Virus record (IMG/VR): IMGVR_UViG_3300042314_000359
Span: 1-49,553 of that record
Reading direction: 5' to 3' (one strand)
From: a virus
DNA length: 49,553 nt
The position numbers and the translations under genes were made by a program. How positions within the stretch are numbered: the stretch's first letter is position 1; each line of letters starts with the position of its first letter. The notes under the pieces were generated by a model that made no database searches, had not been told where the DNA came from, and worked only from the letters and a program-made list of their open reading frames with translations. Below are positions 6,304 to 38,106 of this stretch, piece by piece.

Positions 6304-6711
6304 ATGGCAGATGCAGTAGCAACACAAACCCTGTTCGATGGCGAGCGTATGGCCATTATGAAATTTACGAACATCTCCGACGGCACCGGCGAGACCAAGG
6401 TGACCAAGGTTGATGTTTCGACGCTCAACCCTAGCTCTTTCAGCAAGGCTTGCGACGGCGTTACTATCGTTAAGATGCACGTCTTTACGCACGGCCTAAT
6501 TGTTGACATGTTCTGGGACGCCACCACGGACGTGCTTATCACGTCAATCCCGCAGAACACCATGTACTCGATGGACCTGACGGAGTTCGGCGGTCTGTGG
6601 AACAACGCAGGCGCAGGTAAGAATGGCGACATCCAATTCTCTACTCACGACGCCAGCGCCGGTGACAGGTACACTATCATCCTTGAGATGGTTAAGTCCT
6701 ACGCAGATTGA
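6304..6711 (+). CDS. Hypothetical virion protein, 135 aa
   Basis: ATG 6304 is chosen because GAGG at 6291-6294 is its ribosome-binding site; an in-frame TTG at 6289 would place that site inside the gene. The 135-residue product is beta-rich, with MKFTNISDGTGETKVTKVDVS near the start and a Trp/Gly-rich centre (FGGLWNNAGAGKNGD). This arrangement is seen in small structural proteins next to capsid genes of environmental phages. A role in the particle is inferred from position only. It overlaps the next gene by one base. Confidence 0.6.
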   Translation: MADAVATQTLFDGERMAIMKFTNISDGTGETKVTKVDVSTLNPSSFSKACDGVTIVKMHVFTHGLIVDMFWDATTDVLITSIPQNTMYSMDLTEFGGLWNNAGAGKNGDIQFSTHDASAGDRYTIILEMVKSYAD

Positions 6712-7331
6712 TGATGGACAACGCCTTCGACCTCCGACAGTTTAAGGCCAAGAGCCACATCGACGACGCGCTGGGCGTGAACAAGCGCGGGCAGCAGCCC
6801 ATGCAGCAACCAATGCAGCAAGGACAACCGCCCCGCGCCAACGCGAACTTAACACCGAACGGCATGCAGGTCGGCGCTCAGATGCCCATGCGCAACGGCC
6901 AGTTCGACATTGGCGCTCAGATGCGCGTCGACCCCAAAGGCGTCGCGCTCCAGCAGCTTCAGGCGCAGTACAGCAATCCAAAGTTCTCTGCGGGCGTGGG
7001 CTACAATCCGCAGCAACGCGGCGTCAACGCCAACTTGCGCATGCCCTTTGCCAAGGGCGGTCTCGCTATGGCCGAGGGCGGCGGCGCATGGACCCGCAAG
7101 GAGGGGCAGAACCCCGAAGGCGGCCTCAATGCCAAGGGCCGCGCATCGCTGCGCGCTCAGGGCAAGGACATCAAGCCTCCTGTCAGCGCGAAGCAGGCAA
7201 AGAAATCACCAAAGGCAGCCGCGCGTCGCAAGTCATTCTGCGCACGCATGTCTGGCATGCCGGGGCCGATGAAGGACGACAAGGGTCGCCCGACACGCAA
7301 GGCACTTTCACTCCGTAAATGGGATTGCTGA
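6711..7331 (+). CDS. Basic Gln/Gly-rich protein with conserved C-terminal DUF6321-like motif
   Basis: The 206-residue protein starts at ATG 6711 (6714 is an alternative), sharing one base with the previous stop. Residues 20-100 are low-complexity Gln/Met/Asn/Gly. The C-terminal half carries AWTRKEGQNPEGGLN, then ASLRAQGKDIKPP, then KKSPKAAARRKSFCARMSGM and a final SLRKWDC. That series strongly resembles a widespread phage family of unknown function (I believe DUF6321). Known members are small basic proteins in structural or DNA-metabolism neighbourhoods. The module also includes FAKGG and AEGG, short motifs repeated in several other proteins of this phage. Confidence 0.65.
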   Translation: MMDNAFDLRQFKAKSHIDDALGVNKRGQQPMQQPMQQGQPPRANANLTPNGMQVGAQMPMRNGQFDIGAQMRVDPKGVALQQLQAQYSNPKFSAGVGYNPQQRGVNANLRMPFAKGGLAMAEGGGAWTRKEGQNPEGGLNAKGRASLRAQGKDIKPPVSAKQAKKSPKAAARRKSFCARMSGMPGPMKDDKGRPTRKALSLRKWDC

Positions 7332-7332
7332 T

Positions 7333-7509
7333 ATGAGCGACTTTGCAGTAAAACCTGTCTGGGACAAGAAGCGCCCGAAGGATCTCGGCAAGCCGAAAGA
7401 CTTGTCGGTCAAGCGCAAGAAAGCTGCCAAGGCTCGCGCCAAGGCGGCTGGACGACCCTACCCCAATTTAATTGATAACATGGCTGCGGCCCGCAAGAAA
7501 GGTAAGTGA
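7333..7509 (+). CDS. Very basic 58-aa protein
   Basis: Begins at ATG 7333, one base after the previous stop region, and ends at 7509 one base before the next ATG. The product is Lys/Arg/Ala-rich (SVKRKKAAKARAKAAGR) with a short hydrophobic patch PYPNLIDNM. This histone-tail-like composition suggests nucleic-acid contact, possibly with packaged DNA. No family is recognised. Confidence 0.6.
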   Translation: MSDFAVKPVWDKKRPKDLGKPKDLSVKRKKAAKARAKAAGRPYPNLIDNMAAARKKGK

Positions 7510-7510
7510 C

Positions 7511-8005
7511 ATGGACGGATTTAAGAATAGCACTCGGATGAAGTACATGACCGGCGGCCCAGTAAAGATGTTCGAGGGCGGCACGTACAACGAACGCGGC
7601 AAGCGCGCAACGATGGCCGAGATTGCGGCGGAAGATCGTCGCATGTCTGGCCGCAAGGCACCCGTCGAAGGCATCTCAACACGCCCGACCGACGCCTCTG
7701 GCCGCCGCGCAACTGACGCAGATCTTGGCGTAGGTCGCCCCGCAGTTAAGAAGCCAATGCCAAAGGCTCCTGCCAGTGGCATAGGCGGCGGTGCTTTGGC
7801 TGGCGCTGCTGCTGGCGCTTTGGCTGGTGCCGCAGCCCGCGCGGCTGCTAAGGCTGGCGCTCGTGGAATGGGCGCTATGTCCGACCGCGAAGCGCAGATG
7901 ATGAAAGCTGCGGCAGCAAAGAAAGGCGTTCCAGCACACAGCAGCAAGCCTATGATCCGCCGCAGCAAGGGCGGTCTGACCGCAATGCCAAAGGGTAAGT
8001 GCTAA
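7511..8005 (+). CDS. Gly/Ala-rich basic protein, 164 aa
   Basis: ATG 7511 is preferred over an upstream in-frame start at 7472 because it abuts the stop of the 58-aa gene. The product has an N-terminal MTGGPVKMFEGG segment, a charged linker, then an Ala/Gly-rich helix-like stretch (GGGALAGAAAGALAG, about residues 92-110), and ends RRSKGGLTAMPKGKC. The hydrophobic Ala/Gly stretch could be a weak membrane segment or a packed helix. It is the last gene before a strong terminator at 8014-8043. Function is unknown; virion association is inferred from the KGG/EGG motifs shared with other structural proteins here. Confidence 0.6.
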   Translation: MDGFKNSTRMKYMTGGPVKMFEGGTYNERGKRATMAEIAAEDRRMSGRKAPVEGISTRPTDASGRRATDADLGVGRPAVKKPMPKAPASGIGGGALAGAAAGALAGAAARAAAKAGARGMGAMSDREAQMMKAAAAKKGVPAHSSKPMIRRSKGGLTAMPKGKC

Positions 8006-9662: not shown

Positions 9663-12600
9663 GCAACGTCCCTACAAATCTCATCCCTACCCGCATTACC
9701 GGCCTCCCTGAATATCAGGGAACGAGCACACTCGGCTACATGCCGTACATCATCGACGGTCAGACGTTCAAGGTCCAGTTTGCGAACATCGCTGCCGTCG
9801 GCGCGGTGCCGTCCTCGCGTGAAATCAACTCCGGCAGCGGTCTGGGCGGCGGCGGAGACCTGTCAGCCAACCGCACGCTCTACATCTTGCCATCAGGTGT
9901 TGACGACAGCATGCTGACCACCACGGGTGTCACGGCTGGCAATTACGGTGCCGCCGACAGCGTGCCAGTCCTCACGGTCAACGCGCAGGGCCGCGTCACG
10001 GGTGCGACCTCGGCACCTATCGTGCTTGCAAATTACGTCCCCACCAGCCGCACAATCACGGCTGGCGCGGGGTTAACGGGCGGCGGAGATCTTTCCGCCA
10101 ACCGTTCCTTCGCTGTAATCTTTTCATCTACAACGCCTGAGCCTCTCGGTCCCGGATCACCCGGTGTCTCGACTGTTGCCGCGCGTGGAGATCACGTCCA
10201 CCCTGCGGTGGACCTGAGCGACACCACGGAAACGCAAGGCGTGCTCCCCTTGTCCCGTGGCGGCACCGGCAACAGTCTGTCTCCTGTTGTCGGTGCCATC
10301 GCATATTCCAGCAATGACGCGCTGTATTTAACGCCTACGGCTGGCACCGCAGGTCAGGTGTTGGTCTCTGGCGGTGGCGTGGCTCCGCCGTTCTGGCAGA
10401 CGATCACAGGCACAGGTACGGTCACTTCGGTGTCTGTTACCACCGCCAACGGCTTTGCCGGAACGGTTGCTAACGCAAGCACGGTGCCCGCGATTACGCT
10501 TTCGACGACCGTGAGCGGCTTGCTTAAAGGCAACGGCACCGAGATACTTCCGGCCACCGCAGGCATTGATTACGTCGCGCCGGGCGCATACACCGCCAGC
10601 GGCCTCACATTGGCCTCTGCGCGGCTTCTAGGCCGCACTACGGCATCAGTCGGCGCTGCGGAGGAAATCTCCGTCGGCAATGGTCTGACGCTCGCCAGCG
10701 GCTCTCTGGTTAACGCTGCGCCCGATCAGGTCGTGGCGCTGACAGGCGGCACCGCGATCTCGGTCACCGGCAGCTACCCGTCGTTCACGGTCACCAACAC
10801 CGCGCCAGATCAGGTCGTATCCCTAACAGGCGCAGGCACGACGACCGTCACTGGCACGTACCCTAGCTTCACAATCACATCGAACGACAGCACCGCAGGC
10901 ACCGTGACCAGCGTCAATGCCAGCGGCGGCACAACGGGCATGTCGTTTACCGGCGGCCCAATTACGTCGGCGGGCACACTGACCCTCAACGGCACGCTTG
11001 CCGTCGCCAATGGCGGTACTGGCGCAACGGACGCAGTCGCTGCTCTAACGAACTTAGGTGCGTACCCCGCAAGCAACCCTTCGGGCTTCACATCTAACGT
11101 AGGTACGGTGACGTCAGTCTCAGGCACCGGCACCGTCAGCGGCCTGAGCCTGAGCGGCACAGTGACGTCCGCAGGTTCGCTGACACTTGGTGGGACGCTT
11201 GCCGTCCTGCCGTCCAACTTCGCGTCGCAGACGGCCAACACGGTCCTTGCGGCACCGAACGGCTCGGCAGGCACGCCGACGTTCCGCGCTATCGTCGCGG
11301 CGGACATCCCGACGCTCAACCAGAATACAACGGGCACGGCCTCAAACGTCACGGGCATCGTCGCCATCGCCAATGGCGGCACAGGCGCGAGCGTGGCGGC
11401 TACGGCGCGCACGAACCTCAGTGCGGCGGCCTCTGGTGCCAATACCGACATCACGTCGATTGCGCTCACCACAGGCACGATCAGCACGTCGCCAGTCAAC
11501 GGCACCGACATCGTCAACAAGGCGTATGCCGACAGTATCGCGTCAGGCATCAACTTCCATCAGTCCGTGCGCTTGGCAACGGCTGCGGCGTTGCCTGCCA
11601 ACACGTACAACAACGGCACTTCTGGCGTCGGCGCGACGCTCACGGCCAATGCCAACGGCGCACTCTCGGTCGACGGCGTGGCCGTGGTTGCGGGCAACCG
11701 CATCTTGGTCAAGGACGAGGCGGCGGGGGCCAATAACGGCGTCTACGTTGTTACGCAGGTCGGCAGCGGCTCGACGCCGTACATCCTGACACGCGCCACA
11801 GACTTCGACAGCGCAGGCACTGGCGTTGACCAGATCGACGCGGGCGACTTCTTCCTTGTCACGGCGGGATCGACGCTGTCCAACACGTCGTGGGTGCAGC
11901 AGACGCCGCTGCCGATCACTGTCGGCACAACGCCGATTACGTTTACGCAGTTCGCCGCGCCGGTCCTGTACTCGGCGGGCACTGGCCTCACGCTGACCGG
12001 TACGGTCTTCAGCATCACGAACACAGGCGTAAGCGCATCGACCTACGGCAGCGCGTCCTCCGTGCCCGTCATCGCGGTCAACGCGCAGGGTCAGATTACG
12101 TCTGCGTCGTCGTCTGCAATCGCTATCGCCGCGTCGCAGATCACGTCTGGCGCACTCGCCATCGCTAATGGCGGTACTGGCGCGACGAGCGCGGCGACGG
12201 CCCTGACGAACCTTGGAGCGTACCCCGCGAGCAACCCGTCTGGTTTTACCTCGAACACCGGCACCGTCACCAGCGTCAACCTGACTGCGGGAACGGGCGT
12301 CAGCGTCTCTGGCGGCCCTATCACGTCCTCTGGCTCTATCACCGTCACCAACACGGCTCCCGATCAGGTTGTGTCGCTGACAGGGTCTGGCGCTACGACC
12401 GTGACAGGCACGTACCCGAACTTCACTATCTCCTCACCCACGAGCGGCGCGGGCACCGTGACGAGCATCAACGTCAGCGGCGGCACCACCGGCCTGACGA
12501 CGTCTGGCGGTCCGGTCACCAGCAGCGGGACGATCACACTCGCAGGCACGCTGAACGTCGCCAACGGCGGCACAGGCGCAACGACCCTGTCGTCGGGCTA

Positions 12601-28222: not shown

Positions 28223-28455
28223 TCGACCCTCGCGGAATGACTTGGCAAGACTGGGCCTGTTCAGTTATACTGTCGGTCAACGACGCGTGGGCATTCGGCA
28301 CGCCTCCCGATGAGGCCGAGTGGCAAGGCTGGGCTATAGGGCTGTTGCGTGCCTCTCCATTTACGCAGCAAATTATTCCTGATCCCTATCAGTTCTCTGA
28401 TTGGCGTGAGTGGGGAATGCGTGTATATCCAATGCTCGAAGGTAAAAGCTCATGA
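28219..28455 (+). CDS. Small Trp-rich protein, 78 aa
   Basis: Overlaps both neighbours by four bases. The product is rich in Trp (MTWQDWACSVILSVNDAW, EWQGWAIGLLRASP, DWREWGMRVYPML) and likely forms a compact helical unit. Proteins of this sort between the nozzle and internal-protein genes are common in related environmental phages. Function is unknown. Confidence 0.6.
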   Translation: MIDPRGMTWQDWACSVILSVNDAWAFGTPPDEAEWQGWAIGLLRASPFTQQIIPDPYQFSDWREWGMRVYPMLEGKSS

Positions 28456-30977
28456 ATTACATCCCCGGCTTCAGCAAATATCTGGAAACGTCCGTGCCGC
28501 GTTACGCTATTGGCGGACGCGTGATGGATGGCGAGCGCATGATGTATGACATGGACCGTTACGGCGAGCCTATGATGTACGACATGGGCGGCTACGGTGA
28601 CGGTGACACGCGCGGCTACAGCGAGCCGTATCAGTACACACCCCCCATCGAACAGTATATGCCTGTCGAGCAGCCTATGATGTACGGCGGATACGACATG
28701 GGCGGCTATAACGAGCTGCCATACGGCGGTGGCGGCATGCTGCCCGCGCCTGTTGAGCAGCCGTACCAGCAAGCGGCAGTCGAGCCGATGACGACAGAGG
28801 CTGTGCCTGCCGAAGTGCCGTTTGACCCTAACACGTTTGACTTTAGCAAACTTGACCTGAGCGGCCTAAACAACCTGTACGGGATGAATTTCGGTTCGAA
28901 CTTCGGTGGCGGCCCGATGGGCGGCATATATCAAGCCGATCCTAATTTGCAGTACATCGGCGCGCCGTTATCTAACAAAGGCAATCCCACCTCGCAGACA
29001 GGTGGCAACACCTTCGCGGTGCGGGCCGACCAGCCTGTACGCCTCGTTGACCACCGCACCAACCAGATCGTGTTCGAGGGTACAGGCTTCGACGCCGCGC
29101 GCAAGGCAACCGAATTAGGTCAGGGCCTGACGGACCAGTTTGGCCGCAAGGCGAACTACAGCATCCAAACCGCAGACCCGACTGGTAACTACTCGACTGT
29201 CGCGTATGAGAAGAAGAACAAGAGCACGCTGGGCAAGATTGCTGGTGCGGTCGGAACGGCTCTGCCATTGGCAACGATGTTCATACCGGGCTTGAACGTC
29301 CTTGGCACCATCGCCGCTGGGGCTGGTCTTGGCGGCGCAGGTGCGGCGCTTAGGGGCGACAATATCCTCAAGGGCGTTGCGATGGGCGGCTTGTCTGCCG
29401 CTGGCGGTCAAGTACTCGGCCCTGCACTGGAAGCTGGAGGTAAATTCGGCACCGCTTTAGCTCCAAAACTTGCCACGGCAGTAGGTACAGGTCTCGGCTC
29501 GACCGCAGGCGGTTTAGCCACGGGCCAGAGCCTGAAGAACGCACTCCTTGGTGGCGTTGCTTCGGGCGCGCTTAGTTACGTAGCGCCCACTGTGGCCAAC
29601 GAGCTAGGTCTCAAACCGATAAACCTTAACGGCACCAAGGGTACGTCCGGTTCGAGTGGTATGACCGCCGACGGCGGCTTACAGGTGACTGCGTCTACTT
29701 TAGGTACGCCAAGCATAGGCACCACTCTCGGTGGCTCGCCTAACAAAATTCAACAAGCATTGGCCGAAAAGCCGTATGACGGCCTCACCGTTACCGGCAG
29801 CAGGCTCGGCAACGCGTTTGGTGTTAACCTTGGAGGCAACCAGTTCGGCGCGCCCGGAGAAGATGTATCCGCGTTCGACCGACTGACCGACACCGCTGAC
29901 CCCAACGATATCCTTGTTAAAGCAAGCCCACTTGAACAGGCAGTCCCAGCTCCCGTGAATACTGGGCTATCGCCCGATGTACTCGCTGGAATAGCTGAAT
30001 TTGAGAAGAACCCTATCATCTCTGAAGGTTCTAAGATTGAGCAGGCAACCCCTGTTTCTGTCCCAGTCACGAGTGGGCTATCGCCCGATGTACTCGCTGG
30101 AATAGCTGAATTTGAGAAGAACCCTATCATCTCTGAAGGTTCTAAGATTGAGCAGCCTACCGATACCGGTGGCCTCAATTTAGATCTCGGCGTAATCGAC
30201 AGGGTTTCCGGTATGGAAAACTACAAGGAGCCAATCGTTGTAGAAGGTTCTAAGATTGAGCGGCCCGAACCCACATCGGTTTCGGTGATGCCCCCCTTAG
30301 ACCCTCTTCCTCCTTTGGACTTAAAGCCCGACCCCGCGCTGACAGACGAGAAGAAGCTCGGCCTCGAAGAGTACCTGCGCATCGCGAGCCTCATTTCCGG
30401 CTTAGTCGGCGGTGGTGGCGGTGGCTCAGGCCAAACTGGCACATACGGTGGCGGCGGCACAGGCCGGTTGAACCCGATCTTCTCGGCCAAGCTGCCATCC
30501 GCAGGCGGCCTCGGCGCTATCGGCGCGACCCGCACAGCGCGTCCGATGGGCGACCAAGACTGGCTGACTTACGGCACACGGCCTGAGCTTAACTTCTTCG
30601 ACTACGCATCGCAAGCCAACCCTGCGCCTATCACCACACCTATTCCAAACGAGCCGAGGGGGCCGTCGATGTACGCCCCTGACGTTGACAACATGCGTTT
30701 CGCAAAGGGCGGCTCGTCTAAGCGCAGCGAATTTGCAGTCAACGGCCCCGGCACTGGCCGCAGCGACGACATCCCTGCGGTGCTGTCCGACGGCGAATAT
30801 GTGATCGACGCCGAGACTGTCGCCCTGCTGGGTGACGGGTCGAATAAGGCTGGCGCAAAGAAGCTGGACGAGCTTCGAGTTAAAGTTCGTAAACACAAGG
30901 GTCAGAAGTTGGCAAAGGGCCGTTTTAGTGCTAACGCCAAGAAGGCCGAAGCATATCTGTCTGGAGGACGCATTTAA
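28452..30977 (+). CDS. Large internal/ejection protein A, 841 aa
   Basis: Starts in an ATGA overlap. Residues 25-110 are Met/Tyr/Gly-rich with repeated MMYD and MGGY. Residues 255-385 are a Gly/Ala-rich membrane-active-looking stretch (GAVGTALPLATMFIPG, AAGAGLGGAGAAL). Residues 495-600 contain a 37-residue repeat. The C-terminus has a known phage motif (GPGTGRSDDIPAVLSDGEYV, then ALLGDGSNKAGAKKLDELR and VRKHKGQKLAKG). Known proteins with this ending are virion structural proteins near tail genes. I infer that it is packaged and ejected with the DNA. Confidence 0.65.
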   Translation: MNYIPGFSKYLETSVPRYAIGGRVMDGERMMYDMDRYGEPMMYDMGGYGDGDTRGYSEPYQYTPPIEQYMPVEQPMMYGGYDMGGYNELPYGGGGMLPAPVEQPYQQAAVEPMTTEAVPAEVPFDPNTFDFSKLDLSGLNNLYGMNFGSNFGGGPMGGIYQADPNLQYIGAPLSNKGNPTSQTGGNTFAVRADQPVRLVDHRTNQIVFEGTGFDAARKATELGQGLTDQFGRKANYSIQTADPTGNYSTVAYEKKNKSTLGKIAGAVGTALPLATMFIPGLNVLGTIAAGAGLGGAGAALRGDNILKGVAMGGLSAAGGQVLGPALEAGGKFGTALAPKLATAVGTGLGSTAGGLATGQSLKNALLGGVASGALSYVAPTVANELGLKPINLNGTKGTSGSSGMTADGGLQVTASTLGTPSIGTTLGGSPNKIQQALAEKPYDGLTVTGSRLGNAFGVNLGGNQFGAPGEDVSAFDRLTDTADPNDILVKASPLEQAVPAPVNTGLSPDVLAGIAEFEKNPIISEGSKIEQATPVSVPVTSGLSPDVLAGIAEFEKNPIISEGSKIEQPTDTGGLNLDLGVIDRVSGMENYKEPIVVEGSKIERPEPTSVSVMPPLDPLPPLDLKPDPALTDEKKLGLEEYLRIASLISGLVGGGGGGSGQTGTYGGGGTGRLNPIFSAKLPSAGGLGAIGATRTARPMGDQDWLTYGTRPELNFFDYASQANPAPITTPIPNEPRGPSMYAPDVDNMRFAKGGSSKRSEFAVNGPGTGRSDDIPAVLSDGEYVIDAETVALLGDGSNKAGAKKLDELRVKVRKHKGQKLAKGRFSANAKKAEAYLSGGRI
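29963..30155 (+). repeat. Direct 82-bp perfect repeat (37-codon period)
   Basis: Bases 29963-30044 are repeated exactly at 30074-30155, offset 111 bases. A third partial copy (GAAGGTTCTAAGATTGAGC) lies at 30243-30261. The repeat encodes GLSPDVLAGIAEFEKNPIIS and EGSKIEQ, so the protein has a tandem array. Confidence 0.92.
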
Positions 30978-32023
30978 TGTCTCGCAGTTCATTTCTAGCC
31001 GAGGGGGCTGCAATCCCTCAAGGCTCCGCCCTCACGGACATGACCAAGCAGCAGGTTTTGCCTGAGTGGTACTCTAACTACGCGATGGACATCCTGTCGG
31101 GGCAGCAGGCCATAGCCAACCGCCCATACGAAACTGCGCCAATGCCGCGCGTCGCGGGCTTCACGCCGACGCAGCAGCAAGCCTTCGGCATGACTGGCAC
31201 CGCCGCCACGGCGTACCAGCCACTATTCAATCAAGCCACAGGCGTTGCGCAGAGCGCCGCGAATGCGCCGGGCGCGTTAAACACCGCACAGCCGTTCTTG
31301 ACGCAGGCCGGTCAGACATCCGTGTCGAACATCGGCCAGTACATGAACCCGTATACCGACGCCGTTGTCAACCGCATCGGCGAGCTGGGCACGCGCAACC
31401 TCACCGAAAACCTTATGCCTGCGATCGAGGGCCGCTATATCCAAGCCGGTCAGCTCGGCTTCGGCGGGCGTGGTGGCTTAGGCGGAACGCCGTCGGGCAT
31501 GATGACCGACACGGCGCGCGCCCTTCGCGACACCAGTGCCGACATCCTCGGCAAGCAGACCGAGGCGCTCCAATCCGGTTACACGCAGGCCGCTGGGCTC
31601 GCAGGCACTGACCTGTCGCGCTTCGGCACTCTCGCAAGCACGGCTGGCGATCTGGCGCGGGCGCAGCAGCAACAGCAGCTCGCCGCCTCTGGCGCTCTGT
31701 CGACACTCGGCGAGCAGGCGCAGAGCCTCGGCCTCACTGGCGCAGGCGCGCTGGGCGGCGTCGGCGCACTGGAGCAGCAGCAGGGTCAGAAGAACCTCGA
31801 TATTGCCTACGGCGACTTCCTGCGTCAGCAGGGCTATCCGCAAGAGCAGATCAACAACATGCTGGCCACCTTCAAGGGCGTCAGCACTGGCGTTCCGACT
31901 GCGGAGACACAGTACGGCATCTCGCCGTCGGGCGTCAAACAGGAATACTCATCGACTGGGCAGGACATCGCCAGCGCACTAGCCGCTGCGGCGGGCCTCG
32001 TCGGCAAAATTAAAGGGGTTTAA
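30977..32023 (+). CDS. Internal virion protein B, 348 aa
   Basis: Begins at ATG 30977, sharing a base with the previous stop. The protein is Gln/Ala/Gly/Thr-rich and mainly helical. It has PEWYSNYAMDILSGQQAIAN near residue 30, a Gly-rich QLGFGGRGGLGG at about 158, and a Gln run at about 235. The QVLPEWYSNYAM opening and the Ala/Gly-rich body recall internal virion proteins of podoviruses, which form the trans-envelope channel during ejection. Context in the internal-protein operon supports this; no catalytic motif is visible. Confidence 0.65.
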   Translation: MSRSSFLAEGAAIPQGSALTDMTKQQVLPEWYSNYAMDILSGQQAIANRPYETAPMPRVAGFTPTQQQAFGMTGTAATAYQPLFNQATGVAQSAANAPGALNTAQPFLTQAGQTSVSNIGQYMNPYTDAVVNRIGELGTRNLTENLMPAIEGRYIQAGQLGFGGRGGLGGTPSGMMTDTARALRDTSADILGKQTEALQSGYTQAAGLAGTDLSRFGTLASTAGDLARAQQQQQLAASGALSTLGEQAQSLGLTGAGALGGVGALEQQQGQKNLDIAYGDFLRQQGYPQEQINNMLATFKGVSTGVPTAETQYGISPSGVKQEYSSTGQDIASALAAAAGLVGKIKGV

Positions 32024-32025
32024 TC

Positions 32026-33267
32026 ATGGACGAAGATATTGAACCCGGCCTAGAGGCGATTGGCACCACAGACACCGCTGATGTAGAGGAAGAAGCTGGC
32101 GCGCTGCCGTATGCTGCCGTCCGTTCGGCCATGACTGCGCGCAAGGAGGCCGCAAAGGCGCGGCAGGCGTATTACGACGACCTCACCGCAAAACTAACGG
32201 CCCAACGCACTGGACCGTCGTTCAGCGAGCGCATGTTCCAGTTGTCGGCGGCGTTGGCCAAACCGACATCAAGGCGTGGTTTCGGTGCCGTCTTGGAAAA
32301 TGTTGCGCCCGTCTTGCAGGCACAAGAGCAGGCCAAGCGTGAGGGTGAAATCAAACGTCGGGACGCGCTTAACGCGCTGCAAGCCGCCCAGCTTAATCAG
32401 CAAGAAGAGCTGCTCGGACAAGAACTCGACACCGAAATCGAACTTGCCAAACTTACAACACCAAAACCCGCAAGGATGGTGGGAACTCAGATTGTTGACG
32501 GGGTGCCTGTCGCAATCATGCAAGATGCATCCGGCGCAATTACTACTAAACCGCTTGGGTCCGCAGGTGCTACGGGTTCGCCAACTAACATAGGCGAGGT
32601 GTCGGAACGCGGCGGTGTGAAGGGTTTCATAAACGAACGTGGCGCTTGGACGCCTCTGCCGCAGCGCACGGAGAAGGAAACTTTCCGCCCCGCTACGCCG
32701 GAAGAAGCCGCGATGTACGGCGCGACGACGGGTCAGATATCGAACCTAACAGGCAAGTTCATTCCGGGTGCTGCACCGAAGACGCCTACCTTATCGGGGT
32801 CTGAGCAGAAAATACTGATACAGTCCGAGGACGTCCTTAACAGCGCGGAGGACACACTCGGTAAACTCCGCCGCGTAATGGAGCTTAACCCGAAGGCACT
32901 TGAAGGCAGCCTGACAGGCTTCCGTAAACAGATAGGGTCGCTATTCTCCAGCGACGACCCAACGTATGTGGCAACGGAAGAGCTAGACAATACGTTAAGT
33001 TCTATGGCTCTCAGCATGTTGAAGAGCACGTTCCCCGGCTCGGTCACTGAGGGCGAGCGTAAGGCGTTAATGGCTTTGCAGGGAAGTTCCAGCTTGCCAC
33101 GCGCTGCACGCGACCGCATCTACCGTAACGCCTTTGAAGCGGCGCAGACCGTTGCCGCAAGGGCGAGAGATCGCATCCAGAAGACGCAAACAGGCTTCTA
33201 CAGCAAACGGACGTCACCAACCACGCCAGCGGCAGGTAAACCACGCGTCATTAATTGGAACAAATAA
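32026..33267 (+). CDS. Internal virion protein C, 413 aa
   Basis: Starts at ATG 32026 two bases after the previous stop. An acidic N-terminus is followed by helical regions (SAMTARKEAAKARQAYYDDL, FSERMFQLSAALAKPTSRRG and a Gln/Glu-rich coiled coil at 95-140). A middle beta segment (IVDGVPVAIMQDASGAI) and a C-terminal helical domain (QKILIQSEDVLNSAEDTLGK) follow. Similar proteins occur in internal-protein operons of environmental podoviruses. Function is inferred from position. Confidence 0.6.
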   Translation: MDEDIEPGLEAIGTTDTADVEEEAGALPYAAVRSAMTARKEAAKARQAYYDDLTAKLTAQRTGPSFSERMFQLSAALAKPTSRRGFGAVLENVAPVLQAQEQAKREGEIKRRDALNALQAAQLNQQEELLGQELDTEIELAKLTTPKPARMVGTQIVDGVPVAIMQDASGAITTKPLGSAGATGSPTNIGEVSERGGVKGFINERGAWTPLPQRTEKETFRPATPEEAAMYGATTGQISNLTGKFIPGAAPKTPTLSGSEQKILIQSEDVLNSAEDTLGKLRRVMELNPKALEGSLTGFRKQIGSLFSSDDPTYVATEELDNTLSSMALSMLKSTFPGSVTEGERKALMALQGSSSLPRAARDRIYRNAFEAAQTVAARARDRIQKTQTGFYSKRTSPTTPAAGKPRVINWNK

Positions 33268-33268
33268 C

Positions 33269-36200
33269 ATGCCAAGAAATGTAACCGTTACCCTTAGCAG
33301 TGGTGAGACGCTCCAGTTTGCCGACGTGCCTGATGACGTCACGCCAGATCAGATACAAGCGCGTGCCGAAAGCGAAAGCGGTGGCGCTTCAGTCGTGTCT
33401 ATCGACGGTGGCCGAGGTGCAACCCCACCTGCCGGTGCCGCGCCTGCCGAGGGCGCGCCCACAACTGCCGAAGCTGTGCCGATGGATGGTGTCGCTCCGC
33501 AAGCGCCGCAAGAGGACATCGCAGGTTACGAGGCCGGTCTGCGCGATCTGTACCAACAATACACCGAGAAGAAGCGGCCATTTGCCGCCGCCGACATCGA
33601 GAGTTTGGCAAGCAAGTATAACTTGCAGGGGCGCATATCCAACATACCCCAAATCCAAGAGTTCTTCGAACAGTATGGCACGCTGAACCCGTCGCTGGTT
33701 TCTGTTGCGCCAGACGCTCCACCGCCTGAAGCAGTAAAGCAGGACGAGATCATAGGCACCGTGCCACAGGGTGGTGAGAACACGCAGCGCGTGCGGGCAT
33801 TCGGTAAGGGCGTCCTGTTCGACTTCGCGGACGAGCTTGAGGCAGGGGCACGTATGGTTGCGTCGGGACAGATGTCCTCGGACGAATACTATCGCCTCAA
33901 AGAGCAAATCAACAACGACTACAACGCGTGGGCAAAAGCCAACCCCGGAGAGGCGCTTGCGCTAGAGGCGGCTGGTGGTATCGCTGGGTCGTTCGTCCCC
34001 GGCGTCGGCATCGTGGGTAAGGGCTACCAAGCCGCGACAGGCATCGGCAAGTTGGCTGGTGTCGGCACGCGTGCCGCGCTTGTCGGTGCCAGCACTGGCG
34101 CATTGTCTGGCGTTGGACAGGCGAAGACGCTTGGCGACATACCACAATCCCTCATCGAGAACGCGGCATTAGGCGCGGCGTTCAGCGCCCCTGTTGCCAA
34201 GGTGGTGGAATACGGCGGTCGCGGCGTTAACACCGCCGCACAGCGCCTGCGCGAGAAATACGGGCCGGGCATTGAAGTCTTAGATGACGTGACCGGTGAG
34301 TTTACCCGCGTGCCTCAAATACCGCTGACAGCGGCAGATCGCAAGGCGGCAGAGATTTTGACTGACGCGGCTGGCGATACCAGCGTACAACGCTCCATTG
34401 GCTTGACCGCACTGGCAAACCGGCAGGGCGTCCCGCTGCAACTAGGCACGTCCACCCCGCGCATGACTGCGCTCGCCGAAAAGGTGGCAGGGAAGCCGAG
34501 TTCAGGGCAAGAGGATTTAATATCGAATTTGGTAGAGACCCGCGCCGGAACGGCAGCGCGCGCCGGAACGGCAGAGCGCGTTAGAGACCAAGCCGAAGCG
34601 GCGTTGCCCGGCGCGAAGAATGATTACTTTGCCGAGGAGGAGGCGATATCAGACCGCCTTCGCGCGATTGGCGACACTGAGTACCAACGTGCATTTGCCG
34701 TGGGTGAAGTCAACGACCCTGAAATCATGGCCATCATCAACAATCCGTCGCCTATTATCCGCAGCATATGGCAATCTGTGCAGAACACCGCGCAGATAGC
34801 GGAAAAAGAGCTGCGTATGGCTATGGAACCTGTGCTCGACGCAGGTGGAAACCTTGTCGGTCTGGCACCGACAGCAAACGCCATACCCGACGTGGAGGTG
34901 CTGGACTTGTTCAAGCGCGCCCTCGATGACCGCATCGATAAAGGCTTCAGGGGCACTGGCTCTGAAGGAAAGTTTGAGGCGGATGCGCTTAAAAAACTTC
35001 GCAACAATATGGTGAAGCGCTTAGACTTCCTCGTCCCTGAATACGCCGCAGCGCGTAAAAAGTACGCAGGCGACCTCGAAGTGCGCGATGCAATGCGGTA
35101 CGGTCTGGACATATTCTCGCGTAAGATACGCCCAGCGGAACTTCGGATGAAGCTCAAGGACATGTCCGACGCAGAAAAGGAAGCCGTCAAGACTGGCGGG
35201 TTAGAGGCCATGTTCCGTAACATCGAAGGCGCTAGTGGCGGCGACCTAGCCAAGAAACTGGCTGGCACGCCTGAGAAACTGCAAAAGCTGAAAAGCATCA
35301 TGGGGCCGCAAGAGGCTAAGTTCTTCGAACGCGTCATGCAGAAAGAAAGCCAACTGTACCAGCGCACGGGCAAGATTACCGGCGGATCGCGGACTGCTGT
35401 CCTCGCCGAAGGCATGGACGCCCTCGACGCCGCCCTCCAGAAAGGAAACATAGAGGAGGCCGTCAACTTCTTGATGGCAGGCCCGCAGGGTAGGCTCGCC
35501 GCCTTCGGTCGGTTTGTCGGCAGGATGAACCCGCGCAAGGAGTTCGGCGACCAAGTCTACACGAAACTGAGCCGCGCCCTTTCGGCACAGAAGCCAGAAG
35601 AACTGCGCGAAGTCTTCGACATGCTGCGCCGCTCCAAAAGCTACACCGACTATATGACCTCGGTCAAGAATGTCGCCACCGGTAGGGCCGCCGCAGTCAC
35701 TGGCGCTACCGCGCCGTCAATGTTCGAAGATCGTAGCTTTGCGCCACCACCACCAACTGAAGTAGAGCCAGACCCTGAAGCGTTGCTTATGGACGCGTTG
35801 TCTTCAGGCGGCCTCGGTACCGCCATAGGTGACGGGGCTGCTGCGGATGAGGCGGCGATGCAAGAAAATCTGGCCGCTGAAGAAACCATACCAGAAATCG
35901 GCACTGTCATGATGAATAACCGCGAGGTGCAAGAGGGTGCTGACGGTCGCATGTATTACGTTGACGACAATACACTCGCTGAAGGCATCTCTATGGGCAT
36001 GTACCGTGGCGGCAGCGTGCAGGCGTTCAACAAGGGCGGCAATAAGGGCAAGACGGTGCCAGTCAGCTACGCGGGAAACGTCGGACGGTCTATCCTTGAG
36101 GGGTTGACGTTCAACAACGCGGGCGAGCTTGAAGCTGCTTACAGGGCTTACCTTCGTGGTCAAGGCAACTACCGCGATTTGAAGACTGGCATCGAGAATG

Positions 36201-36637
36201 ATTACAGCGGGTTCAAGGCCAAAAACCCCGGCACGGCGCTGGCCGCTAATTTAGGTGGGGCCATCGTTCCGGGTGTTGTGGGCGCATTCGTGCCGGGCGG
36301 CCAAGGGGTGGCCCTGTCCACTTTGGGCCGCGTAGGTCGCGCGATGGCGGAGCCAGTAACTGTGGCAACACGTAGGCTTCTGCCTAACGCGGGCGTGCGC
36401 CTGCAACGCGCTCTGCCGTATCTGGACGAGGGGTTGACCGGTATCGTACAGTCCATCGGATCGGCCAACACTATGGCCGACGCTCCACGCCAAATTGCGG
36501 AAGATGCCCCGTATAACATAGCGGGTAGTCTCGGCGTCCGTGGTGTCAACGTCGGCATCAAGAAAGGCGTAAATAAGTTCCGCGCACGGAAGAAAGCAAC
36601 CGGCGGTCTCGCCGTTAAGAAAGGTGCAAGTAAATGA
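33269..36637 (+). CDS. Large internal/ejection protein D with duplicated module, 1122 aa
   Basis: ATG 33269 follows the previous stop by one base. The opening (VTLSSGETLQFADVPDDVTP) is common at the start of long phage internal proteins. Residues about 178-300 and about 939-1060 are similar: both contain a DELEA or GELEA helix, NDY, then ANPGEAL or KNPGTAL, and a hydrophobic Gly-rich tract with FVPG. A long helical region occupies the centre. Short GG motifs (YRGGSVQAFNKGG, ATGGLAVKKG) occur near the C-terminus. The hydrophobic Gly-rich tracts could insert in host membranes during ejection. No lytic transglycosylase motif is visible. Confidence 0.65.
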   Translation: MPRNVTVTLSSGETLQFADVPDDVTPDQIQARAESESGGASVVSIDGGRGATPPAGAAPAEGAPTTAEAVPMDGVAPQAPQEDIAGYEAGLRDLYQQYTEKKRPFAAADIESLASKYNLQGRISNIPQIQEFFEQYGTLNPSLVSVAPDAPPPEAVKQDEIIGTVPQGGENTQRVRAFGKGVLFDFADELEAGARMVASGQMSSDEYYRLKEQINNDYNAWAKANPGEALALEAAGGIAGSFVPGVGIVGKGYQAATGIGKLAGVGTRAALVGASTGALSGVGQAKTLGDIPQSLIENAALGAAFSAPVAKVVEYGGRGVNTAAQRLREKYGPGIEVLDDVTGEFTRVPQIPLTAADRKAAEILTDAAGDTSVQRSIGLTALANRQGVPLQLGTSTPRMTALAEKVAGKPSSGQEDLISNLVETRAGTAARAGTAERVRDQAEAALPGAKNDYFAEEEAISDRLRAIGDTEYQRAFAVGEVNDPEIMAIINNPSPIIRSIWQSVQNTAQIAEKELRMAMEPVLDAGGNLVGLAPTANAIPDVEVLDLFKRALDDRIDKGFRGTGSEGKFEADALKKLRNNMVKRLDFLVPEYAAARKKYAGDLEVRDAMRYGLDIFSRKIRPAELRMKLKDMSDAEKEAVKTGGLEAMFRNIEGASGGDLAKKLAGTPEKLQKLKSIMGPQEAKFFERVMQKESQLYQRTGKITGGSRTAVLAEGMDALDAALQKGNIEEAVNFLMAGPQGRLAAFGRFVGRMNPRKEFGDQVYTKLSRALSAQKPEELREVFDMLRRSKSYTDYMTSVKNVATGRAAAVTGATAPSMFEDRSFAPPPPTEVEPDPEALLMDALSSGGLGTAIGDGAAADEAAMQENLAAEETIPEIGTVMMNNREVQEGADGRMYYVDDNTLAEGISMGMYRGGSVQAFNKGGNKGKTVPVSYAGNVGRSILEGLTFNNAGELEAAYRAYLRGQGNYRDLKTGIENDYSGFKAKNPGTALAANLGGAIVPGVVGAFVPGGQGVALSTLGRVGRAMAEPVTVATRRLLPNAGVRLQRALPYLDEGLTGIVQSIGSANTMADAPRQIAEDAPYNIAGSLGVRGVNVGIKKGVNKFRARKKATGGLAVKKGASK

Positions 36638-38106
36638 GCTGGCAGAAAGACTTGGCAAAGCTGGCCGGAGAGTACGGCAAAGAAGTTGTAGACCGACTGG
36701 TTGGTATCCTCCCTGACGACAGCACCGTAGCGCAAGCGCGGAAGGCTCTCAACAACCTTGTGGGCGGCGACAGACCCAATGCCCCCAAAGCGAAGCCTAC
36801 TCAGACAGCAAAACCAAAAGCAAAAAAGCCTCTGGCTGTGAAAACAGAGAAGCCTGCTGCGCCTGCCATTATCCGCAACCGTTCCGGCACGTCTGGCGCA
36901 ACCGCACAAGATGTTCTGAGCGAAGCAAAAAGCCCAAGCAAGGGCGCGCCATCGTATGCTGATTGGCGTGTTAAAAACCCCGGCTACGGTGAGCTTTTTG
37001 ACGTCAGCAGACTTGCAGACGTTCCAGATGTCCCACAGTTCCAAATTCCGCGCACGGTTCCGTCTCGTGGCCCGACAGCGCGTATTGTTGAGGCCCTCGC
37101 CAACCCTGAAGTTGAGCGCGGCATCAACGAAACTGTCGAACGTGGCATAGCGGGCGGTGGTAAAGAGTGGTACAACACTGATCCTATTTTGCGGAGGTTG
37201 GAGGGCCTTTTGCCGAGTGGCGACGCCTCTGGGTCGTATGCGCGTCTGATGGACTTGATGGCGGCCACCAGTCCCCGTGCGCGTGTCCCTGACAACGTGC
37301 GCACCGGCTCGTACTACAATTACCTCCAGTCGCAAGGATTGCCTATTCCAGACCGGCCCGCAGAGGGTTACGGTTCGATTGCGCAAAAACTTCACCGCGA
37401 CAACGTGTTGGGCCTACAAGAACGCGGCGGTTTTGACATTTACAAAAATCCAAAGCCTGCGAGTTTCTCAAGCAATCTGCAAGGCAACCAACAGGTCGCG
37501 ACGATTGACACGCACAATTTCCGGCTGCCCGGCATTCTTTCGGGCGATCCGCGTTTCTTGGAGACATCAATCGCAGAACTGGCGAAAACACCTGAAAGCG
37601 CAATGGAGACCCTGCGTCGCCAGTACCCCGGCCTCCCAGAAGATGTCATTCAGTCTTCGGTTAAAATTAAACCCGGCAAGATTAACAAGAAGGGCGAGAT
37701 AGGCGAGGACGAAGTGTCCATGACGTACCGCCCGCAAAGCTGGGTAGCCGAGGGCTACATACCTATGGAAGACGCCCTGCAAGACCCAGCGCTCTGGGCT
37801 GCAAAGCCGCGTGATAATGAGTACGGCTACTACGAAAACTGGCAGCAAGACCAAGCCCAAAAGATGGGGATTTCACCAGCGCAGTACCAAGCATCGATGT
37901 GGCTCGGCGGAGGTGATACAACAGGCCTCGGCTCGGCAGCCGAACCTTTCCTCGGCACTTTTGAAGCGCGCGCCCGTTATACGGCAGACCGCCTCGGTAT
38001 GGACCCCGACGAAGTCTTGAACATGATGCTCAGGGGTGAGATACCGTTTTTGGCCGAGGGCGGTTCGGTTGAGGTGCGGGAACTGGCGGAGAAATACGAC
38101 GTGTGA
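36634..38106 (+). CDS. DNA-glycosylase-like (HhH-GPD-resembling) protein, DUF7178-like
   Basis: A 490-residue protein starting in an ATGA overlap, last of the internal-protein operon. Residues 1-100 are basic and Pro/Ala-rich. The central part (about 180-310) has LMDLMAATSPRARVPDN, then YKNPKPASFSSNLQGN and VATIDTHNFR. Lys274 and Asp292 lie 18 residues apart, exactly as catalytic Lys120 and Asp138 in E. coli endonuclease III, where the Asp also sits in a VDTHIFR context. The helix before it resembles the LLSAQATD helix of that family. The C-terminus has a GISPAQYQASMWLGG segment and a final FLAEGGSVEVRE. This suggests a base-excision-type fold in a virion-linked protein. Activity is unproven, and a degenerate non-catalytic fold is possible. 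Confidence 0.6.
   Translation: MSWQKDLAKLAGEYGKEVVDRLVGILPDDSTVAQARKALNNLVGGDRPNAPKAKPTQTAKPKAKKPLAVKTEKPAAPAIIRNRSGTSGATAQDVLSEAKSPSKGAPSYADWRVKNPGYGELFDVSRLADVPDVPQFQIPRTVPSRGPTARIVEALANPEVERGINETVERGIAGGGKEWYNTDPILRRLEGLLPSGDASGSYARLMDLMAATSPRARVPDNVRTGSYYNYLQSQGLPIPDRPAEGYGSIAQKLHRDNVLGLQERGGFDIYKNPKPASFSSNLQGNQQVATIDTHNFRLPGILSGDPRFLETSIAELAKTPESAMETLRRQYPGLPEDVIQSSVKIKPGKINKKGEIGEDEVSMTYRPQSWVAEGYIPMEDALQDPALWAAKPRDNEYGYYENWQQDQAQKMGISPAQYQASMWLGGGDTTGLGSAAEPFLGTFEARARYTADRLGMDPDEVLNMMLRGEIPFLAEGGSVEVRELAEKYDV

What the first reader, a model, noticed from the sequence alone, without database searches (positions are those of the whole stretch)
36634..38106. DNA-glycosylase-like protein encoded at the end of the internal-protein operon
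Lys274 and Asp292 are 18 residues apart, as in endonuclease III (Lys120 and Asp138). The sequence around the Asp, ATIDTHNFR, closely resembles the family's VDTHIFR. An upstream LMDLMAATSPRARVPDN block looks like the first HhH-GPD helices. Most phage genes of this kind are described only as unknown. If packaged, it would be a repair or base-excision activity delivered with phage DNA, or one directed at host DNA.
Basis: partly seen in the sequence, partly recalled or inferred. Interest (0 to 1): 0.78.

Follow-up and report, generated by a model that had tools for sequence, protein, structure and literature searches.

The report
Phage effector with DNA-glycosylase-like fold
A virus of bacteria carries, at the end of the gene block for proteins it probably injects with its DNA, a distant relative of DNA-repair glycosylases that keeps both predicted catalytic residues and, in related viruses, shares a start-of-protein tag with a neighbouring ADP-ribosyltransferase-like gene, so it may be one of a set of swappable injected enzymes.

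Summary
The ORF is real (36634-38106, +, 490 aa, no Cys), and K274 and D292 are 18 residues apart. Both are invariant in 46 viral homologues, down to 25% identity. The family is a decorated, phage-only branch of Pfam DUF7178 / phrog_3842, both filed as unknown function. Foldseek with the window protein's own confident AF2 model (pLDDT 93) finds nothing usable in the PDB. The compact 198-aa DUF7178 protein of a cyanophage (hhalign E 5e-12 to the window family) folds at pLDDT 94, and its best PDB matches are almost all 8-oxoguanine DNA glycosylases (MjOgg, Pa-AGOG, OGG1). A merged DUF7178+window profile aligns to HhH-GPD enzymes with K on K129 and D on D147 of MjOgg; score 32.8, against at most 16.2 in 100 column permutations. 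Packaging and activity are unproven. Supporting context: homologues fused to SLT transglycosylase, cell-wall hydrolase and ART-PolyVal; in seven relatives the last two genes of the block (the first ADP-ribosyltransferase-like in at least five) share an N-terminal leader that differs between phages but matches within each, like a capsid-targeting sequence.

The parts
36634..38106 (+). Gene for the 490-aa glycosylase-like protein (decorated DUF7178 / phrog_3842 relative)
36634..36768 (+). N-terminal leader (residues 1-45, MSWQKDLAKLAGEYGKEVVDRLVGILPDDSTVAQARKALNNLVGG). In relative L007 a near-copy starts the adjacent ADP-ribosyltransferase-like gene
36769..36870 (+). Lys/Pro/Ala-rich low-complexity linker (about residues 46-79)
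   Evidence: sequence
37141..37548 (+). First part of the HhH-GPD-like core (residues 170-305): WYN motif, LMDLMAATSPRARVPDN helices, YG..A helix, K/D segment
37453..37455 (+). Codon of Lys274, predicted Schiff-base nucleophile (equivalent to MjOgg K129 and E. coli Nth K120)
37507..37509 (+). Codon of Asp292, predicted catalytic Asp (equivalent to MjOgg D147 and Nth D138)
37543..37812 (+). Insertion with beta strands (about residues 304-393), absent from compact DUF7178 proteins
37816..37923 (+). Second part of the core (residues about 395-430): EYGYYENWQQDQAQKMGISPAQYQASMWLGGG helix pair, aligned with the last two helices of Ogg2
38050..38070 (+). C-terminal tail motif LAEGGSV (residues 473-479); similar GG tails occur in other proteins of the operon and in the ADP-ribosyltransferase-like neighbours of relatives
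33269..36637 (+). Upstream gene (likely start ATG at 33269, MPRNVTVTLSSGETLQFADVPDD...); phrog_5880, unknown function; overlaps the finding by 4 bases
32026..33267 (+). Operon member, phrog_24990 relative, unknown function
30977..32023 (+). DNA ejection protein relative (phrog_4287)
28452..30977 (+). Tape-measure-like protein with GG / GPGTG...DDIPAxLSDGEYVI C-terminal module

Best explanation
The protein is a divergent member of the HhH-GPD DNA-glycosylase superfamily (the DUF7178 branch). It has an N-terminal leader and a GG-type C-terminal tail around a glycosylase-like core that carries a family-specific insertion. It most likely works as a bifunctional DNA glycosylase/AP lyase: Lys274 attacks C1' of a flipped nucleotide with Asp292 as the catalytic acid, the base leaves, and the Schiff base collapses by beta-elimination to nick the strand. 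It is most likely made late, placed in the head with the ejection proteins (the leader being the best candidate targeting signal) and delivered into the host with the genome. There it either repairs the incoming genome or attacks host or rival DNA carrying a particular base. Shown: ORF, conservation, fold relationship through the compact homologue, register of K and D, gene position, fusion partners in homologues, matched leaders. Inferred: catalysis, lyase step, substrate, packaging and role of the leader.
For: K274 and D292 invariant in 46/46 homologues; the equivalents K119 and D137 invariant in 37/37 compact homologues. The window family matches compact DUF7178 by hhalign at prob 97.5, E 5e-12, and 38 of 46 members hit PF23802, best 1e-13. 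The compact model (pLDDT 94) has top PDB hits MjOgg 3knt (prob 1.00, TM 0.62), Pa-AGOG 1xqp (prob 1.00, TM 0.57) and many OGG1. The merged profile versus HhH-GPD scores 32.8, E 3.6e-4, permutation maximum 16.2, pairing K with K129, D with D147 and the terminal W. The window family alone versus Ogg2 scores 23.9 and exceeds 200 of 200 permutations. Depositors independently call compact homologues glycosylase or N-glycosylase/DNA lyase. Delivery: last gene of an ejection/tape-measure block; homologues fused to SLT transglycosylase, cell-wall hydrolase and ART-PolyVal; located between portal and coat genes in Roseobacter and Microcystis phages; leader matched to that of the neighbouring gene in 7 phages.
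Against: Foldseek with the window protein's own model finds no HhH-GPD structure at E <= 10. The compact model's best PDB E-value is only 0.02. The window family alone versus the Nth/MutY/AlkA profile is not above its permutations (20.4 against a maximum of 21.2). There is no PF00730 hit in the window and no canonical HhH hairpin sequence. The insertion and extra helices may change or block the substrate pocket. No proteomics or biochemistry exists for any member that I could find, and the window genome itself has only one gene with this leader.
Confidence: 0.55

Rival explanations
1. Active HhH-GPD-type glycosylase that is not packaged: an intracellular repair or host-DNA-processing enzyme whose late-operon position is incidental.
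For: Compact DUF7178 relatives are stand-alone genes outside the structural block in cyanophage S-CBP42 and sit among small genes of unknown function in several actinophages, which suggests an intracellular role in those phages.
Against: The decorated branch sits in structural/ejection blocks and is fused to virion-type SLT and hydrolase domains; the matched leaders and GG tails are shared with neighbouring operon proteins.
Confidence: 0.18
2. A catalytically dead HhH-GPD fold reused as a DNA-binding or structural ejection protein.
For: Virion-operon position; large insertion and extra helices; direct fold search finds no enzyme.
Against: K274 and D292 are among the very few absolutely invariant residues across 46 divergent sequences. 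A dead scaffold would be expected to lose one of them.
Confidence: 0.14
3. Not related to HhH-GPD; an unrelated all-helical phage domain with a chance K-x17-D and DTHxxR resemblance.
For: The direct window-model Foldseek search is negative; short helical motifs recur by chance; permuted profiles reach scores of 20 or more in single comparisons.
Against: Compact-homologue Foldseek hits converge on one enzyme class. The merged-profile score is twice the best of 100 permutations, in the catalytic register. Independent annotators call compact homologues glycosylases.
Confidence: 0.07
4. On the leaders only: the matched leaders are the relic of a tandem duplication whose second body was replaced, and have no targeting role.
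For: Within L007 the two leaders are about 64% identical in DNA and 62% in protein, as expected for an old duplication; several leaders are low-complexity A/K-rich helices.
Against: Leader type changes between genomes yet stays matched within each (2 of 5040 assignments reach the observed sum, these being the true one and a swap of two near-identical leaders), which requires repeated duplication or conversion. T4 and P1 use N-terminal capsid-targeting sequences in this way (PMC3012670, PMC9024508).
Confidence: 0.4

Closest known systems
Pfam PF23802 (DUF7178) / phrog_3842, compact phage proteins such as Synechococcus phage S-CBP42 gp36 (198 aa)
   Same: WY...SPR...N, K-x(~17)-D, DxH/DxW and QAxxW core; hhalign E 5e-12 over the whole core
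   Different: Window protein adds leader, linker, an insertion of about 90 aa between the D helix and the last helix pair, extra C-terminal helices and a GG tail; its own Pfam score is below the cut-off (15 versus 27 bits)
Ogg2 / AGOG 8-oxoguanine DNA glycosylase/lyases (MjOgg 3knt/3fhf, Pa-AGOG 1xqp)
   Same: Fold of the compact homologue (TM 0.57-0.62); K-x17-D in [24 protein letters not shown] versus KPASFSSNLQGNQQVATIDTHNFR (10/24 identical, ungapped); last helix pair ending in W
   Different: Overall identity near background; hairpin sequence not conserved; insertion and extra helices; substrate unknown; phage late-operon context
Endonuclease III (Nth) / PF00730 HhH-GPD
   Same: Position and spacing of catalytic Lys and Asp, VDTHIFR-like motif
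   Different: No PF00730 hit, no 4Fe-4S cysteines, no canonical LPGVGRK hairpin, shorter connection before the hairpin
T4 internal proteins with capsid targeting sequence; P1 DarB (N-terminal 30 aa sufficient for packaging)
   Same: Common N-terminal leader in front of different bodies, in phages that inject effector proteins (PMC3012670, PMC9024508)
   Different: No sequence similarity tested; leader function and protease cleavage unknown here; different phage type
Polyvalent proteins (Iyer et al. 2017, PMC5512222), ART-PolyVal
   Same: DUF7178-like domain fused to ART-PolyVal in L034 and beside ART-like genes in relatives
   Different: A text search of the paper for glycosylase, endonuclease III and base excision found nothing; the window protein is a single-domain protein rather than a large multidomain one
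Brig1 / Brig3 antiphage DNA glycosylases
   Same: Glycosylases used in phage-host conflict (PMC11078745, PMC13160076)
   Different: Bacterial defence; Brig1 belongs to the uracil-DNA-glycosylase superfamily, and both are reported without significant lyase activity; here the gene is the phage's

Membership tests
HhH-GPD DNA glycosylase superfamily | Catalytic Asp at the start of the helix after the HhH (VDxHxxR) | tested here: met
   D292 invariant in 46 homologues, aligned with D138 (Nth) and D147 (MjOgg)
HhH-GPD DNA glycosylase superfamily | Lys at the start of the second HhH helix (bifunctional enzymes) | tested here: met
   K274 invariant; aligned with K120 (Nth) and K129 (MjOgg); N-terminus of helix 273-282
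HhH-GPD DNA glycosylase superfamily | Overall two-lobed helical fold | tested here: inconclusive
   Window model: no PDB match. Compact homologue model: matches OGG2/AGOG/OGG1 with prob 1.00, TM about 0.6, best E 0.02
HhH-GPD DNA glycosylase superfamily | Canonical helix-hairpin-helix sequence (LPGxGxK) | tested here: not met
   Helix 251-264, loop 265-272 (residues 265-274 read GGFDIYKNPK), helix 273-282: helix-loop-helix present, consensus hairpin sequence absent
HhH-GPD DNA glycosylase superfamily | Hit to PF00730 profile | tested here: not met
   No hit for the protein up to E 1 or in the genome; only profile-profile comparison detects the relation
HhH-GPD DNA glycosylase superfamily | Base excision / AP lyase activity | not testable with these tools
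   Needs purified protein
DUF7178 (PF23802) | Score above curated cut-off (27 bits) | tested here: not met
   Window protein 14.7-15.6 bits; homologues L034, L051, L016, L077, L054 and L070 pass
DUF7178 (PF23802) | Core motifs and alignable whole domain | tested here: met
   hhalign prob 97.5, E 4.9e-12, 167 columns
Ogg2-type 8-oxoguanine glycosylase | 8-oxoG specificity and C-terminal recognition residues | not testable with these tools
   C-terminus extended and pocket residues not assignable
Capsid-targeted internal protein (T4 IP / P1 Dar type) | Leader shared with another late protein of the same phage | tested here: inconclusive
   Met in 7 related phages and weakly in Roseobacter phage CRP-901; not in the window genome itself, which has a single such gene
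Capsid-targeted internal protein (T4 IP / P1 Dar type) | Presence in the particle and injection | not testable with these tools
   Needs virion mass spectrometry or reporter fusion

The most novel reading that the evidence does not exclude
These phages carry a modular effector locus at the end of the ejection-protein operon. Interchangeable enzymes (ADP-ribosyltransferases and DUF7178 glycosylase/AP lyases) sit behind a phage-specific, co-evolving N-terminal capsid-targeting leader and are injected with the genome. The glycosylase nicks DNA at a particular base, to cripple host or rival DNA or to clear damage or host-made lesions from the incoming genome. This would be an injected base-excision enzyme.
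Probability: 0.3. Interest if true: 0.82.

Novelty: new variant of a known kind. Interest (0 to 1): 0.62.

Why it matters
It links a domain of unknown function (DUF7178 / phrog_3842, found in cyanophages, roseophages and actinophages) to a defined enzyme superfamily with two named catalytic residues, so its chemistry becomes directly testable. Base-excision enzymes are known weapons of bacteria against phages (Brig1, Brig3), and a phage-delivered counterpart would extend that arms race. The matched leaders suggest a packaging code for injected effectors in environmental phages that could be used to find further injected proteins from sequence alone.

Tried and rejected
PDB sequence searches with the protein and with family profiles gave nothing. 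Foldseek of the window model against PDB gave no usable match, so the compact homologue was folded instead. NCBIfam gave nothing meaningful for the window protein, the compact homologues or the ART-like gene. No relatives were found in plasmids or by pattern scan in genome contigs; a DUF7178 profile search of 398 genomes found one hit, inside a 3606-aa open frame. The idea of an Fe-S endonuclease III was rejected because there is no cysteine. Overlapping - strand ORFs (36202-37395, 36984-37304) were rejected as genes because the + strand protein is conserved across divergent phages. No paper mentions DUF7178 in the library searched, and none was found for Microcystis phage MJing1. The single-profile hhalign scores were judged too weak alone and were supplemented by the merged profile with permutation controls.

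Full report
Observation. The ORF at 36634-38106 (+) encodes 490 aa. It begins in an ATGA overlap with the preceding gene, which encodes more than 1100 aa, and is the last gene of a + strand block that holds portal, head, tail-fibre, tape-measure-like and DNA-ejection-like genes. It is followed by a convergent - strand block that includes a DNA polymerase.

Conservation. tblastn finds relatives in only four cultured phages at E <= 0.01: Microcystis MJing1 and Roseobacter CRP-901, CRP-3 and CRP-212, all annotated hypothetical. About 200 stretches in environmental viral contigs encode relatives. None was found in plasmids or by a genome-contig pattern scan. Across 46 divergent members only six residues are fully invariant, and K274 and D292 are two of them. 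The motif is NPKPxxFxxNLxGNxxxxTxDTHxxR.

Family. The window protein scores below the cut-off for PF23802/DUF7178, but 38 of 46 members match that family, best 1e-13, and several pass its cut-off. hhalign of the window family against compact DUF7178 proteins gives prob 97.5, E 4.9e-12 over 167 columns. Compact DUF7178 proteins (about 200 aa) occur in Synechococcus and Prochlorococcus phages, roseophage SIO1 and many actinophages. Some depositors call them glycosylase, DNA glycosylase or N-glycosylase/DNA lyase, without published evidence that I found.

Fold. The window model is confident (pLDDT 93) but Foldseek against PDB gives no HhH-GPD match; against viral models it finds polyvalent proteins and compact 198-202-aa proteins. 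For the compact model (37 sequences, pLDDT 94), twelve of the thirteen best PDB matches are 8-oxoguanine DNA glycosylases and the other (1xg7) is deposited as a hypothetical protein. They include MjOgg (prob 1.00, TM 0.62), Pa-AGOG (prob 1.00, TM 0.57), SsOgg and OGG1. E-values are modest (0.02), so sequence profiles were used as an independent test. A merged DUF7178+window profile against an Nth/MutY/AlkA/Ogg2 profile scored 32.8 (E 3.6e-4), while 100 column permutations reached at most 16.2. The alignment pairs the Lys with MjOgg K129, the Asp with D147 and the final helix Trp. The window family alone aligned its last helix pair to that of Ogg2 with a score above 200 of 200 permutations, and aligned its K/D segment to Nth K120/D138, though there within the range of permutations. 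The MjOgg sequence, and the K129Q change in 3knt, were seen. The comparison [24 protein letters not shown] versus KPASFSSNLQGNQQVATIDTHNFR is ungapped with 10 of 24 identities (read directly from the sequences).

Differences from the classical family. There is no cysteine, hence no Fe-S cluster. The loop before K274 does not have the LPGxGxK sequence. About 90 residues with beta strands are inserted after the Asp helix, and further helices follow the core. Substrate specificity therefore cannot be carried over from 8-oxoG enzymes.

Context and delivery. In homologues the domain is fused to SLT transglycosylase, cell-wall hydrolase or ART-PolyVal, which are typical parts of proteins that phages deliver through the envelope. 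In Roseobacter and Microcystis phages it lies between portal and coat genes (for MJing1, between the terminase and DUF5309 genes). In L007, whose glycosylase-like protein is 97% identical, an extra gene sits exactly between the upstream gene and the finding. It encodes an ADP-ribosyltransferase-like protein (28% identity, E 3e-13, to the ART-PolyVal region of L034) with a 62% identical 50-residue leader. The same arrangement, two adjacent genes with a common leader and different bodies, occurs in L004, L010, L024, L025, L303 and L304. The upstream body is related to the L007 ART-like protein by BLAST in L010, L025, L303 and L304, and is not shown to be so in L004 and L024. The second gene of L304 carries a divergent DUF7178-like domain by eye; the second gene of L303 has another, unidentified body. 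The leader type varies between phages but is matched within each: among all 5040 assignments only the true one and a swap of the near-identical L303/L304 leaders reach the observed sum. A weaker leader similarity links CRP-901 gp68 with gp66, annotated nuclease (E 0.001). Tails with a GG motif recur in several proteins of the operon. This resembles the capsid-targeting sequences of T4 internal proteins (PMC3012670) and P1 DarB (PMC9024508). It is an analogy, not evidence of packaging.

Mechanism. Best supported: a Lys/Asp HhH-GPD-type glycosylase/AP lyase delivered with the genome. Shown: gene, conservation, superfamily relationship, catalytic register, neighbourhood. Inferred: catalysis, lyase step, packaging, target. 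Repair of the incoming genome and attack on host or rival DNA are both open.

Limits. Structure coordinates could not be read, so the active-site distance is not measured. The fold link rests on an intermediate. The control permutations destroy helix periodicity as well as homology, so the margin is somewhat generous; reversed-profile controls in the single comparisons gave 10.5-16.7. The leader test uses seven related genomes, and the leaders were first noticed in the same data.

Noticed in passing
L007:6826-7938, L004:6643-7806, L010:6322-7593, L024:6697-7815, L025:6362-7537, L303:1512-2522, L304:4866-5882: The gene directly upstream of the glycosylase-like (or second leader-bearing) gene shares its N-terminal leader; the upstream body is ADP-ribosyltransferase-like in L007, L010, L025, L303 and L304; leader type differs between phages but matches within each.
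   Followed up: partly
L015:7806-9176 and 9955-11514 (Roseobacter phage CRP-901 gp68 and gp66): Weakly shared leader (MGNPLKDFIGDLGQGVIDT / MANPVKGAISQLGERVIDT) between the glycosylase-like protein and a protein annotated nuclease, in a phage that can be cultured.
   Followed up: partly
window 6708-7331, 7472-8005, 28452-30977, 33269-36637, 36634-38106: Several late proteins end in or contain [AKR]xGGx[VA]-like tails, also seen in the ART-like proteins of relatives; possibly a second sorting signal.
   Followed up: partly
L188 (G101:C12:266710-267198): A DUF7178 domain inside a 3606-aa open reading frame of a bacterial genome, the only hit among 398 genomes; probably a polyvalent protein of a mobile element.
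   Followed up: no
L304:5878-7263: A divergent DUF7178-like protein (GGGKVPSFYNNIANPYSEAPISTIDTHSAG, QSATW) occupies the second leader-bearing gene in a different phage, with a longer K-to-D spacing; recognised by eye only.
   Followed up: no
window 33134-33269: The mechanical ORF start of the upstream gene overlaps the previous gene; the likely start is ATG 33269 (MPRNVTVTLSSGETLQFADVPDDVTPDQIQARA).
   Followed up: no
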